From positions 1 through 58,133 of the forward strand of contig JADBKP010000003.1 in the NCBI GenBank assembly GCA_014896315.1: 58,133 bases of DNA, given 5' to 3'. Below, piece by piece: positions 43,019 through 47,700 of this stretch (position 1 is the first letter of the stretch; each line of letters starts with the position of its first letter). A model generated the notes under the pieces. It was not told the origin of the DNA, searched no databases, and saw nothing but the letters and a program-made list of their open reading frames with translations. The position numbers and the translations under genes are program-made. Source of the DNA: Limnochordales bacterium. Its GTDB lineage: Bacteria > Bacillota > Limnochordia > Limnochordales > DUMU01.

Positions 43019-43046
43019 TTGCGCCTGCAGGTCAGCCAATTATAAT
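43019..43046 (+). promoter_or_regulatory. Promoter of the imuB-dnaE2 operon
   Basis: TTGCGC, a 16-base spacer and TATAAT form a good sigma-A promoter 72 bases before the imuB start. The LexA boxes begin 6 bases after the -10 element, an ideal position for repression. Confidence 0.7.
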
Positions 43047-43051
43047 ATAAG

Positions 43052-43078
43052 CGAACACCAGTTTCGAACAACAGTTCG
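43052..43078. promoter_or_regulatory. Tandem LexA (DinR/SOS) boxes
   Basis: CGAACAACAGTTCG at 43065-43078 matches the Firmicute LexA consensus CGAAC-N4-GTTCG exactly. A second, weaker site CGAACACCAGTTTC at 43052-43065 shares one base with it. Both sit over the transcription start region of the polymerase operon, so the operon should be induced by DNA damage. Confidence 0.85.
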
Positions 43079-43117
43079 CAAGCAGCATTCCGGCGGCCAA
43101 CGGTAAGGTGACTGCTG

Positions 43118-44230
43118 ATGTCCCAGGTAGCCTGTATCCTCCTGCCTCATTACTATGTGCCGGCCGTTCCTAAAGTAGCAGTACAGGCCGATCAATCATT
43201 ATTGAGAGTTTGTATCAAGTACACTGAGGTAGTGGAAGTTTCCCATTCTGGGCAAATCTTCCTCGATCTATCTAGGCTTCCCGGCAGCAGCAGCATAATG
43301 CCTTCGCTGCTCAAGGAGATTGTCCTGGTCACCGGCCTGCAGCCTGCACTGGGCTGGGGAGTCAACCGCTGGATTGCCAAGCTGGCTGCCCGCCACGCCA
43401 GTACCCGCCAGTTGCCGGCACTGACCATAGTCCCTCCCGGCCATGAAATGGCGTTCTTGCAACCTTTGCCGATACGCTGGGCAGATGAGATTCCGGAAGA
43501 GGTTTGCCTTCGCCTGGAGCAACTGGGTATTCGCACCTGGGGCCAGGTCCTCTCTGTGCCCCCCCACCACTTGTTGGCCCAGGCGGGCCTGGAAGCCGGA
43601 AATCTGCTTTTGCGCCTGGCACGGAACGAAGACCGGCGTCCTCTGCAAACCTGGCCCTGTCCTCCCTGGCTTGAAGTCAGCCAAATCGGGGAGTTCACCC
43701 AGGAGATCATGCCAGTGGCCACAGAACTTGCCCGTTCCCTGGCAACCCGGCTCGCAGCCGGAGATTGGGCGGCGGGCAGATTGGTCCTGATAACGGCCGG
43801 ACGCGAGGATCTTAAGCCGCTCCCGGCTCTCAAGGACACCGGCCCGGAAAGGAGACAACCACACCGCAGGAAAGAGTACAAAGCGGTGCTGAATCCCCCT
43901 TCTCCTGTTCCTGGAGACTTCGATCGCCTCAACCTTATCACCCGCCAGCTTTTCACCCGGCTTCTCGCCCGCCTGCAACAAGACGATCCGACCGGGGAAT
44001 GGGAGATTACCTTACGGGCGGAAAACCTCACACGGGCGCGGCAGCAACAAACCCGCCTTCCCTTTGCCGCTCGCGGCGATGAAAGGGATAGGGAAAAACG
44101 CCTTATATCGCTGCTCAACTCCTTACAAGCTCGTTTTGGCCCCGACACCGTCCGGGTGGCCGGGGAGTACGCACCCGACCGCCGGGAGAAGGTGCACCAG
44201 CTGTTGAGGGAGGCTTACGAACTCTTATGA
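43118..44230 (+). CDS. imuB: ImuB-like Y-family polymerase homologue (non-catalytic)
   Basis: 370 residues of the UmuC/DinB fold. The palm should carry D-x-D and D-E metal ligands, but the corresponding places read ACILLPHYYVPAV and EVVEVSHSGQIFLDLSRL, with the acidic pair absent, as in ImuB proteins. Thumb or helix-hairpin-helix features follow (EEVCLRLEQLGIRTWGQVLSVPPHHLLAQAG) and a little-finger-like part with DRLNLITRQLFTRLLARLQ. ImuB acts as a scaffold linking the beta clamp and the DnaE2 polymerase in error-prone translesion synthesis. It is first in an SOS operon; its stop overlaps the next start (ATGA). Confidence 0.85.
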   Translation: MSQVACILLPHYYVPAVPKVAVQADQSLLRVCIKYTEVVEVSHSGQIFLDLSRLPGSSSIMPSLLKEIVLVTGLQPALGWGVNRWIAKLAARHASTRQLPALTIVPPGHEMAFLQPLPIRWADEIPEEVCLRLEQLGIRTWGQVLSVPPHHLLAQAGLEAGNLLLRLARNEDRRPLQTWPCPPWLEVSQIGEFTQEIMPVATELARSLATRLAAGDWAAGRLVLITAGREDLKPLPALKDTGPERRQPHRRKEYKAVLNPPSPVPGDFDRLNLITRQLFTRLLARLQQDDPTGEWEITLRAENLTRARQQQTRLPFAARGDERDREKRLISLLNSLQARFGPDTVRVAGEYAPDRREKVHQLLREAYELL

Positions 44231-44475
44231 GCCATCTGGTCAAGCAAAAGGTGACCGTCCGGTGTGACGCGCACGGACTCCCTCTCTCCTTCCGCTGGCA
44301 GAACCTCTCCCGTGAGATCCAGGAGATCATCGACTTCTGGCTGGAGATAGGGAGCTGGTGGCGAAACGAACCGCCCAAGGCCTTCTTCCAGGTGCGCGCC
44401 GCCCTGGCCGACCGCTACACGCTCTACCGGGAGCTGCCCGAGGGAGATTGGTACCTATACCGGATAGAGGACTGA
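44227..44475 (+). CDS. DUF6504-like small protein of the mutasome operon
   Basis: 82 residues: VTVRCDAHGLPLSFRWQNLSREIQEIIDFWLEIGSWW...PKAFFQVRAALADRYTLYRELPEGDWYLYRIED. The W-x-G/N...W-W...Y...W-Y-L-x-R order resembles the DUF6504 proteins found beside imuB and dnaE2 in Actinobacteria. It overlaps imuB by 4 bases and precedes dnaE2 by 12, so the three are one translational unit. It may be an accessory subunit; that is inference. Confidence 0.7.
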   Translation: MSHLVKQKVTVRCDAHGLPLSFRWQNLSREIQEIIDFWLEIGSWWRNEPPKAFFQVRAALADRYTLYRELPEGDWYLYRIED

Positions 44476-44487
44476 GGATATGAGGAT

Positions 44488-47400
44488 ATGAGTTTCGTTC
44501 ATCTGCACGTACACTCACCCTACTCCTTCCTTTCCGCCACCGCCGCTCTGGAGGAATTGGTGGCCAAAGCCGCCGCCCTGGGAATGCCGGCCCTGGCGCT
44601 GACCGACCGGATGAATGTGAGTGGAGCACTGGCCTTCCATAAGCTGGCATGCGCCGCCGGCCTTAAACCGATCCAAGGGGTGGAACTGGTGGTACCTTGC
44701 CTCTTCCCCCAGTTTGCCCCCCACCATTGCTGTTCCCCGGACCAGCCGCAAGCAACAGCCATTCTCATCCTGCTGGCACAGAATCCCCGCGGGTATGCCA
44801 ATATCTGCCGGCTTCTGACCCTGGCCTACCAAAACAGCCCCCGCCAGAATCCGTGCCTTCCCCGCTTCGCCCTGCCGGACAGAGTCCCCGAACTTTGGGA
44901 AGATGTGATCGTTCTCTCCGGCGGACGGGAAGGGGAGATCAGCCGGCTGCTGTTGGCCGGCCGGCGGGAGGAAGCTGCGACGGTTGCCCGGCTCTTCCAA
45001 GAAAATCTTGCTCTTTTCTATCTTGAACTGGAAAACCGGCTGCTTCCCCGCAGCATCTGGCTCAACCAGGCATTGGTGGAGCTGGGAGAATACTTGCACC
45101 TTCCGGTGGTGGCGACGAATCCCGTTCACCAGCTGGAGCGGGCTGACTTTCCTCTTTATGACGTGCTGACCTGCGTACGCACCGGCACGACACTGGAGGA
45201 AGTCCACCCGGCACGTCCCCTCAATGGCGAGAGCTACTTCAAGTCTGCCGAAGAGATGGCCGCACTCTTTGCCCAACATCCCCGAGCCCTGGCCGCCACC
45301 CTGGAGATAGCCGCACGCTGCCAGCCCGCACTTGACCTTTCCCGGCCCCGCTTTCCTTCTTTTCCCCTGCCCCCGGGCGAGATCTCGGCAGCCGCCTTCC
45401 TCCGTCGGCTGGTGGAAGCCGGGGCAAGGCAGCGGTACGGCGAGCTCACCCCGCCGCTCGCCGCCCGTATCGAACATGAGTTAAATGTGATCACCCGGCT
45501 GGGGGTGGAGGATTACTTCCTGGTCGTTTGGGATCTGGTGCAGTTTGCCCGGACCCGGGGCATTCGCCTGGCCGGCCGCGGCTCGGCAGCCGACTCCGTC
45601 GTCGCCTACTGTCTGGGACTGACGGAGGTCGACGCCTTCAAGCGGGGGTTGCTCTTCGAGCGCTTCCTCAGCCTGGAGCGGGCACAAAAGCCCGATATCG
45701 ACATCGACTTCGCCGCCGAGCACCGGGACCGGGTGGCGGCTTACGTCTACGAAAAGTACGGGCGGGAGCACGTGGCTTCCGTCTGCACCTTTTCCACCTA
45801 CCACGCCCGCTCCGCGCTGCGAGAAATCGGAAAGGTGTTGGGGTTTCCGGAGGCGGAGATGGACCGGCTGGCCAAGAAGTTTCCCCACATTCCGGCCGAC
45901 GCCATCGAGAAAGCCGTAGCCACGCTGCCGGAAATCCGTGACAGCCACTTCCCGCTGGAACGTTATCAACTGCTCTTCCGGCTGGCGGCCCGTGTCGCCG
46001 GTTTCCCGCGGTTCATCGGCACACATCTGGGAGGGCTGGTAATCAGCCGCGATCCGATCACCGAGATATCGCCGCTGCAGGTGGCAGCCAAAGGGGTTGA
46101 AATCATCCAGTTCGACAAGGATGCCGTCGAGGATCTGGGGCTGATCAAACTCGACCTGCTCAGCCTGCGTACTCTCTCGGCCCTGGACCAGGCTGTTCAA
46201 ACCGTCCGGCAGGTCTCTCCGGCATTTTCGGAAGCGGAGATACCGGATGAAGATCCTGCCACTTACAGGCGGATCAGGCGTGGCGAGACGGTGGGCATGT
46301 TCCAGCTGGAGAGCCCGGCCCAGCGGGCGCTGCAGGCCCGCCTGGGGGCGGATCACTTTGAAGACCTGGTGGCCAGCGTCGCCCTCATCCGCCCCGGGCC
46401 GATCAAGGGCGACATGGTCGAGCCTTTCCTGGCCCGCCGCCATGGCCGTGAGCCGGTAACCTACTTGCTGCCTGAGCTTGAGCCCATCCTTGCCAAAACC
46501 TATGGAGTAGTGCTCTATCAGGAACAGGTGATTGCCGTCGCCACCCGGGTGGCCGGCTTCACGCCCGGAGAAGCTGACCGCCTGCGCCGGGTGATGACCC
46601 ACTACCGTTCCCAAAAAGAGATGGATGCCATCGGTGAAGAGTTCATTGCCCGAGCCATTGCCCGCGGCATCGACCCCCAGATTGCCCGTACCATTTTCTC
46701 CTACATTGTGGGTTATGCCGGTTACGGCTTCTGCGAGGCCCATGCGGCTGCTTTCGCCAATACTGCCTACAAGACTGCCTATCTGCTCGAGCATTATCCG
46801 GCAGCCTTTTACGCCGCTCTCTTCAGCTGTCAACCGATGGGGTTCTATCCGCCCCACGCGCTGGCGGTGGAGGCAGCCCGGCGGGGCATCAAGATATTAA
46901 ACCCCGATGTGAATAAGAGCGATGGTTGGCGATTTACGGTGGAGGATGAACACACCATCCGCCCAAGCCTTTTTCAGGTCGAGGGCTTGAAAGAGGCAGG
47001 AGTCCGGAAGATTCTTGCGGCCCGCGAGGAGGGTGGGAGTTTCCGCAGCTTCACCGACTTTGTCCGCCGCGTCGACCTGCCCCGGGACGTGCTGGCCAAC
47101 CTGATCCTGGCGGGGGCCTTCGACTCTCTTACCCCCAACCCGCACCGGCGCGCCCTGCTCTTCCAGCTCCCCGACCTTCTTGGCGCAAGGCCCGAGGCTG
47201 CGGGAACCGGCCAGCAGTTGCGTCTGGCACTGGAGATGCCGGAAGAACAAGCCTGGCCGGACTTCACCCCCCTTGAGAAAAGCCTGCGGGAGTTTGCGGT
47301 CCTGGGCTTCAGCCCCAGCGGCCACCCGCTCTCTTTCTACAGGGAACAGTTGCGAACGCTCGGGATAGTCACCAACGAGGAAGTACAGGCCCGAGCCGAG

Positions 47401-47700
47401 GGAGAGCGAGTACGGGTGGCCGGCCTGCTGATCCGTCCCCACCGCCCCCCGACCCGCAGTGGCCGGGTGGTCGTCTTCTTCACGCTGGAAGATGAGACGG
47501 GCCTGCTGGACCTGACCGCGTTCGCACCCGTCTACCAGCGCTACGGCAAGTTCCTCTTCGGGGCGCCGGCCCTGGTCGTAACCGGCCGGGTACAGCGCCG
47601 GGGAGCACGCGCCAGCGTGCTGGCACAGGAGATCGCCCCTCTCAATCTGGGGTCAATGCCGTCCCCGTTCCTATCCTCGCTCCCGTCTCCGCCACCTTGA
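44488..47700 (+). CDS. dnaE2: Error-prone DNA polymerase III alpha subunit (DnaE2/ImuC-like)
   Basis: 1070 residues, the catalytic polymerase of the mutasome. Order: PHP domain (about 1-220), palm with PDIDIDF aspartates at about 402-408, fingers (SRKE...EEFIARAIARGID and YAGYGFCEAHAAAFANTAY near 740-760), helix-hairpin-helix region, and an OB fold at about 970-1045 (VRVAGLLIRPHRPPTRSGRVVVFFTLEDETGLLD). The PHP metal site looks altered: ALTDRMN replaces the usual TDH-G/N. A Pro/Ser tail (SPFLSSLPSPPP) ends the protein inside the convergent lipA gene. No separate imuA is seen. Confidence 0.92.
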   Translation: MSFVHLHVHSPYSFLSATAALEELVAKAAALGMPALALTDRMNVSGALAFHKLACAAGLKPIQGVELVVPCLFPQFAPHHCCSPDQPQATAILILLAQNPRGYANICRLLTLAYQNSPRQNPCLPRFALPDRVPELWEDVIVLSGGREGEISRLLLAGRREEAATVARLFQENLALFYLELENRLLPRSIWLNQALVELGEYLHLPVVATNPVHQLERADFPLYDVLTCVRTGTTLEEVHPARPLNGESYFKSAEEMAALFAQHPRALAATLEIAARCQPALDLSRPRFPSFPLPPGEISAAAFLRRLVEAGARQRYGELTPPLAARIEHELNVITRLGVEDYFLVVWDLVQFARTRGIRLAGRGSAADSVVAYCLGLTEVDAFKRGLLFERFLSLERAQKPDIDIDFAAEHRDRVAAYVYEKYGREHVASVCTFSTYHARSALREIGKVLGFPEAEMDRLAKKFPHIPADAIEKAVATLPEIRDSHFPLERYQLLFRLAARVAGFPRFIGTHLGGLVISRDPITEISPLQVAAKGVEIIQFDKDAVEDLGLIKLDLLSLRTLSALDQAVQTVRQVSPAFSEAEIPDEDPATYRRIRRGETVGMFQLESPAQRALQARLGADHFEDLVASVALIRPGPIKGDMVEPFLARRHGREPVTYLLPELEPILAKTYGVVLYQEQVIAVATRVAGFTPGEADRLRRVMTHYRSQKEMDAIGEEFIARAIARGIDPQIARTIFSYIVGYAGYGFCEAHAAAFANTAYKTAYLLEHYPAAFYAALFSCQPMGFYPPHALAVEAARRGIKILNPDVNKSDGWRFTVEDEHTIRPSLFQVEGLKEAGVRKILAAREEGGSFRSFTDFVRRVDLPRDVLANLILAGAFDSLTPNPHRRALLFQLPDLLGARPEAAGTGQQLRLALEMPEEQAWPDFTPLEKSLREFAVLGFSPSGHPLSFYREQLRTLGIVTNEEVQARAEGERVRVAGLLIRPHRPPTRSGRVVVFFTLEDETGLLDLTAFAPVYQRYGKFLFGAPALVVTGRVQRRGARASVLAQEIAPLNLGSMPSPFLSSLPSPPP

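What the first reader, a model, noticed from the sequence alone, without database searches (positions are those of the whole stretch)
43019..47700. SOS-controlled ImuB / DUF6504-like / DnaE2 mutasome with tandem LexA boxes and no ImuA
An exact CGAAC-N4-GTTCG box and an overlapping second box lie on a clear promoter. Behind it come a Y-family protein without catalytic acids, an 82-residue linker protein and a DnaE-type polymerase, all overlapping or nearly so. In Proteobacteria and Actinobacteria this set normally includes ImuA or ImuA'. Here the small protein may stand in for it. This is a compact form of the translesion machinery in a spore-forming diderm.
Basis: partly seen in the sequence, partly recalled or inferred. 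Interest (0 to 1): 0.75.

Follow-up and report, generated by a model that had tools for sequence, protein, structure and literature searches.

The report
Split-ImuB/DnaE2 error-prone repair operon
This is a DNA-damage-inducible set of three genes for an error-prone repair polymerase, a variant without ImuA that others described in 2013-2026 and that proves to be widespread in this bacterial class, so it is real but mostly ordinary.

Summary
Three abutting genes lie behind a TATAAT promoter with two LexA-type boxes: a Y-family protein without its catalytic acids (iPolY, 370 aa), an 82-aa DUF6504 protein and a 1070-aa DnaE2-type polymerase. No ImuA was found in the genome; PolC, a separate DnaE1, one RecA and LexA are present.

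It is the detached C-terminal domain of ImuB (profile-profile E 9e-10 to proteobacterial ImuB tails). The iPolY carries a C-terminal RecA-N-terminus-like motif (0 of 2000 shuffles reach its score), so the likelier stand-in is RecA itself.

This matches the 'iPolY + standalone ImuB-C + DnaE2, RecA instead of ImuA' module already published (Aravind 2013; Timinskas & Venclovas 2019; Nucleic Acids Res. 2026). It is not an oddity of one genome: most DUF6504 loci read in the class (Limnochordia) have it, and so do 68 of the 80 closest DnaE2 loci in public genomes. Verdict: a new member of a known kind, low interest. One side observation may be new: a sub-lineage keeps the operon but its iPolY lacks the RecA-like motif.

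The parts
43019..43046 (+). Promoter: weak -35 TTGCGC (43019-43024), 16-bp spacer, -10 TATAAT (43041-43046)
   Evidence: Read from sequence; -10 and the following TATAAGCGAACA conserved in G001 and G002; -35 too weak for the consensus scan
43052..43065 (+). First LexA-type box, CGAACACCAGTTTC
   Evidence: 2 mismatches to CGAACN4GTTCG; counterpart at the same promoter position in both same-family genomes
43065..43078 (+). Second LexA-type box, CGAACAACAGTTCG, exact palindrome
   Evidence: tandem second box also in the same-genus genome; operon-start boxes class-wide
43118..44230 (+). iPolY: catalytically dead Y-family polymerase homologue (ImuB body without ImuB-C)
   Evidence: NCBIfam Pol IV models E down to 2.9e-16; catalytic motifs lost; Y-family PDB structures best fold matches, E 6e-18
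44048..44065 (+). Putative beta-clamp motif QTRLPF in iPolY (aa 311-316)
   Evidence: Sequence; Q311 nearly invariant in 50 relatives
44087..44167 (+). RecA-N-terminus-like motif DREKRLISLLNSLQARFGPDTVRVAGE in iPolY (aa 324-350)
   Evidence: PSSM from RecA N-termini: score 37.9, 0/2000 shuffles; own DinB shows none; predicted helix 322-340
44227..44475 (+). Standalone ImuB-C (DUF6504), 82 aa
   Evidence: PF20114 E 7.8e-7; hhalign to proteobacterial ImuB C-termini 96.5%, E 8.9e-10; six-strand beta-barrel-like model, pLDDT 90
44488..47700 (+). DnaE2-type error-prone polymerase (DnaE2X-like), 1070 aa, no CTD after the OB domain
   Evidence: PHP/Pol3/finger/HHH/OB domains; catalytic Asp triad conserved; groups with module DnaE2s 100/98, apart from DnaE1

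Best explanation
The operon encodes an SOS-inducible error-prone translesion polymerase in which ImuB is split in two: iPolY (dead Y-family scaffold) and ImuB-C (small beta-barrel). DnaE2 is the catalytic subunit. LexA sits on boxes over the transcription start; damage and RecA filaments inactivate LexA and the three proteins are made together. iPolY would dock on the beta clamp through QTRLPF and on RecA through its RecA-N-terminus-like motif. ImuB-C would bridge iPolY and the PHP domain of DnaE2, which then copies past the lesion. RecA itself would do the job that ImuA does in the classical mutasome. Shown here: genes, dead catalytic site, ImuB-C homology, RecA-like motif, boxes, no ImuA detected. 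Inferred from published work on homologues: complex formation, RecA and clamp contacts, mutagenesis.
For: Gene order, overlap and promoter. iPolY lacks the catalytic acids, as does every module PolY readable in the class and in the public loci. RecA-NT motif, 0/2000 shuffles. ImuB-C homology, E 8.9e-10 against at best 0.09 for column-shuffled controls. DnaE groups with module DnaE2s, apart from DnaE1, with its active-site triad. PolC and DnaE1 are present. ImuA family NF033429 gives only RecA in this genome and none over cut-off in 73 class genomes, although the model finds three real ImuAs at 30-154 bits. 68 of 80 closest DnaE2 loci have iPolY plus standalone ImuB-C and none has an adjacent ImuA or RecA paralogue. 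Published: PMC3765255, PMC6511836, PMC12926913.
Against: No wet data for this module type. The LexA motif is not enriched genome-wide, and recA and dinB have no box within 2 mismatches in their promoters. The RecA-like motif of the window protein is missed by a RecA-N-terminus HMM (one search returned no hit; the PSSM test was positive), and a sister lineage does without it. The two DnaE1 rows have long branches and the tree is midpoint-rooted.
Confidence: 0.82

Rival explanations
1. The 82-aa protein stands in for ImuA: it would regulate iPolY/DnaE2 in place of a RecA-like subunit.
For: It is the only extra small protein in an operon without ImuA. Some related operons lack the RecA-NT motif yet keep ImuB-C.
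Against: It is homologous to the C-terminal domain of ImuB itself and is predicted all-beta, unlike a RecA fold. Classical systems have both ImuA and ImuB-C.
Confidence: 0.06
2. A true ImuA is present but unseen: highly diverged, or in the unassembled part of the genome.
For: Genome is 96.8% complete in 20 contigs. Pfam RecA misses proteobacterial ImuAs.
Against: NF033429 detects three different ImuA types at 30-154 bits yet finds only RecA here and nothing over its cut-off in 73 class genomes. None of the 80 closest DnaE2 loci has an adjacent ImuA.
Confidence: 0.05
3. The DnaE here is a second replicative or gap-filling DnaE1 rather than a mutagenic DnaE2.
For: Its best single NCBIfam score is the DnaE1 model, 887 bits against 876 for the error-prone model.
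Against: Tree places it with module DnaE2s (100/98) and not with DnaE1; no CTD; a separate DnaE1 and PolC exist; SOS-type promoter.
Confidence: 0.05

Closest known systems
DnaE2X-iPolY-ImuBC-RecA module (Timinskas & Venclovas 2019, Kyrpidia tusciae operon; Nucleic Acids Res. 2026, PMC12926913)
   Same: Dead Y-family protein with RecA-NT motif, standalone ImuB-C and DnaE2 in one operon, no ImuA, in a PolC+DnaE1 genome
   Different: Nothing essential; this family has tandem LexA boxes and a shortened iPolY N-terminus. DnaE2X assignment is by module and tree, not against the authors' own tree
ImuA-ImuB-DnaE2 mutasome (M. tuberculosis, Pseudomonas, Caulobacter)
   Same: LexA-type control, dead Y-family scaffold, ImuB-C domain, DnaE2 catalysis
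   Different: No ImuA; ImuB split into two genes
Geobacter lexA-imuB-C-polY operon
   Same: Standalone ImuB-C next to a Y-family protein under SOS control
   Different: There the Y-family protein is active and DnaE2 is absent
[quoted passage not shown]
   Same: Y-family subunit docks on RecA through the same motif and works with a small beta subunit
   Different: There the Y-family subunit is the catalytic polymerase

Membership tests
DnaE2X-iPolY-ImuBC-RecA module | Y-family homologue with disrupted active site | tested here: met
   Both catalytic motifs lost
DnaE2X-iPolY-ImuBC-RecA module | RecA-NT motif in the iPolY C-tail | tested here: met
   PSSM 0/2000 shuffles at aa 324-350; hhalign of class C-tails to RecA N-terminus E 4.4e-4
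DnaE2X-iPolY-ImuBC-RecA module | Standalone ImuB-C in the operon | tested here: met
   PF20114 and hhalign to ImuB C-termini, E 8.9e-10
DnaE2X-iPolY-ImuBC-RecA module | DnaE2 of the X group | tested here: inconclusive
   Groups with other module DnaE2s and next to DnaE2A; published X/B reference sequences not available here
DnaE2X-iPolY-ImuBC-RecA module | No imuA in the genome | tested here: met
   NF033429: only RecA found; model validated on three ImuAs
DnaE2X-iPolY-ImuBC-RecA module | Physical complex with RecA | not testable with these tools
ImuA-ImuB-DnaE2 mutasome | ImuA subunit | tested here: not met
ImuA-ImuB-DnaE2 mutasome | Full-length ImuB with fused ImuB-C | tested here: not met
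   Two separate ORFs with a 4-nt ATGA overlap
LexA (SOS) regulon | LexA box over the promoter | tested here: met
   Exact box 43065-43078 and second box, conserved
LexA (SOS) regulon | LexA binding and damage induction | not testable with these tools
   Needs footprinting and expression data

The most novel reading that the evidence does not exclude
In this class the split-ImuB/DnaE2 machine may be able to work without ImuA and without RecA docking: a sister lineage keeps iPolY, ImuB-C and DnaE2 under LexA-type boxes but has lost the RecA-like motif, so ImuB-C or DnaE2 would carry the activation step. The window's own iPolY, which keeps the motif, would then use it only optionally.
Probability: 0.1. 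Interest if true: 0.5.

Novelty: new member of a known kind. Interest (0 to 1): 0.22.

Why it matters
It shows that the ImuA-less split-ImuB/DnaE2 module is the usual form in a PolC-containing Bacillota class and not a curiosity of one genome. [quoted passage not shown] The natural series in the class, with and without the RecA-like motif, would allow the RecA-docking idea to be tested.

Tried and rejected
Pfam RecA as an ImuA detector: rejected because it misses two of three known ImuAs; NF033429 used instead. Genome-wide LexA-box counts as evidence of a regulon: rejected, at control level. RecA-NT HMM search: too specific, missed the window protein; replaced by a PSSM with shuffles. An extra gene between ImuB-C and DnaE2 was checked as a possible ImuA: in the six loci read it is trpS on the opposite strand; one other locus (L123) instead has two peptidase-like ORFs between iPolY and ImuB-C. 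Foldseek of ImuB-C against PDB: no significant match, in line with the 2026 paper's 'novel fold'. Apparent absence of a box in the same-genus genome was a start-codon error; the boxes are there.

Full report
Observation. The first two overlap by ATGA and the third follows after 12 nt. Upstream lie TATAAT (43041-43046), a 2-mismatch box (43052-43065) and an exact CGAACAACAGTTCG box (43065-43078). The -35 TTGCGC is weak. The boxes would cover about +1 to +25, a usual repressor position (inference).

Is the LexA box more than chance? Counting alone says little: the degenerate motif occurs 12 times in the 2.59-Mb genome against 13 for a reversed control. Position and conservation say more. In the two same-family genomes the promoter TATAATATA(A/G)GCGAACA is conserved, and the same-genus genome also has tandem boxes. 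Across the class most operon starts have a box within one mismatch, many of them perfect matches to CRAACN4GTTYG; a few show none. The lexA gene has its own palindrome CAAACGGTAGTTTG about 100 nt upstream.

Proteins. The Y-family protein has lost both catalytic motifs, as has every module relative readable. Its predicted fold (mean pLDDT 85) best matches Y-family polymerases in the PDB (E 6e-18). Near its C-terminus it has a clamp-like QTRLPF and then DREKRLISLLNSLQARFGPDTVRVAGE, which resembles the RecA N-terminus (own RecA: [27 protein letters not shown]). A RecA-derived PSSM scores it above all 2000 shuffles, and the genome's own DinB shows nothing. The 82-aa protein is DUF6504 (E 7.8e-7) and matches proteobacterial ImuB C-termini over 79 of 82 columns (E 8.9e-10; five column-shuffled controls 0.09 or worse). 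Its model is an all-beta barrel-like fold with pLDDT 90 and no PDB match. The DnaE has PHP, polymerase, finger, HhH and OB domains and the three catalytic aspartates. In a tree it lies with other module DnaE2s (100/98), next to ImuA-associated DnaE2s and apart from DnaE1 (midpoint-rooted, long DnaE1 branches).

Genome context. The genome also has PolC and a separate DnaE1, one RecA, one active DinB and one LexA. ImuA was sought with NF033429, which recognises three ImuA types (Rhodanobacter 154 bits, Agrobacterium 52, Thermomicrobium 30). In this genome it hits only RecA, and in none of 73 class genomes does it pass cut-off.

Distribution. The genome belongs with Limnochordia: its family includes the Limnochordaceae MAG Bu26. 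DUF6504 matches occur in 47 of 73 class genomes, 40 over the cut-off. The loci read span 42 class genomes with a DnaE2 and/or standalone ImuB-C locus, and 33 loci have both by a simple phmmer criterion. In public genomes 68 of the 80 closest DnaE2 loci have iPolY plus standalone ImuB-C, in Bacillota, Armatimonadota and candidate lineages; none has an adjacent ImuA or RecA paralogue.

Mechanism. Most likely this is a split-ImuB mutasome: LexA-controlled, iPolY as the scaffold on clamp and RecA, ImuB-C as the bridge to DnaE2, DnaE2 as the polymerase. Gene content, dead active site, motifs and boxes are shown; complex formation, RecA docking and mutagenesis are inferred from published work on homologues.

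Comparison with what is known. Aravind et al. 2013 (PMC3765255) described standalone ImuB-C with DnaE2 and an inactive DinB. Timinskas & Venclovas 2019 (PMC6511836) described the Kyrpidia operon of inactive PolY, ImuB-C and DnaE2 without ImuA and proposed RecA as substitute. The 2026 survey (PMC12926913) named DnaE2X-iPolY-ImuBC-RecA, modelled it, and reported it in all three replication-system types. This locus fits that description.

Side finding. In part of the class (families f8/f13 and several MAGs) the iPolY tail keeps the clamp motif and the RRE end but lacks the RecA-like helix and FG; hhalign to the RecA N-terminus falls from 65% to 2% in the group without the FG-type motif, a group that also includes some merely diverged tails. 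I did not find this variant in the main-text passages read. It is the only point here that might be new, and it does not concern the window's own protein.

Noticed in passing
L132, L137, L140, L141, L142; public loci L168, L175, L177, L178, L192, L227, L229, L230: Sister lineage of Limnochordia with the iPolY/ImuB-C/DnaE2 operon whose iPolY tail lacks the RecA-like motif while keeping the clamp motif. Possibly a RecA-docking-free variant.
   Followed up: partly
L081, L106, L111, L114, L119, L129: A trpS gene on the opposite strand sits between imuB-C and dnaE2 in six loci of two class families, so the operon is split there.
   Followed up: yes
L008 (G000:C5:73713-76397): The genome's own DnaE1 is only about 1023 aa and Pfam finds no OB domain in it.
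   Followed up: no
L089, L093 and similar loci: A second DUF6504 group of about 105-190 aa lies away from any polymerase gene, between unrelated genes; function unclear.
   Followed up: no
L005 (G000:C14:213463): Another exact LexA-type box lies between an XRE regulator and an ImmA-like metallopeptidase gene, suggesting an SOS-responsive mobile element.
   Followed up: no
window 47642-47700: The 3' ends of dnaE2 and of a convergent radical SAM gene (probably lipA) overlap by 59 nt.
   Followed up: no
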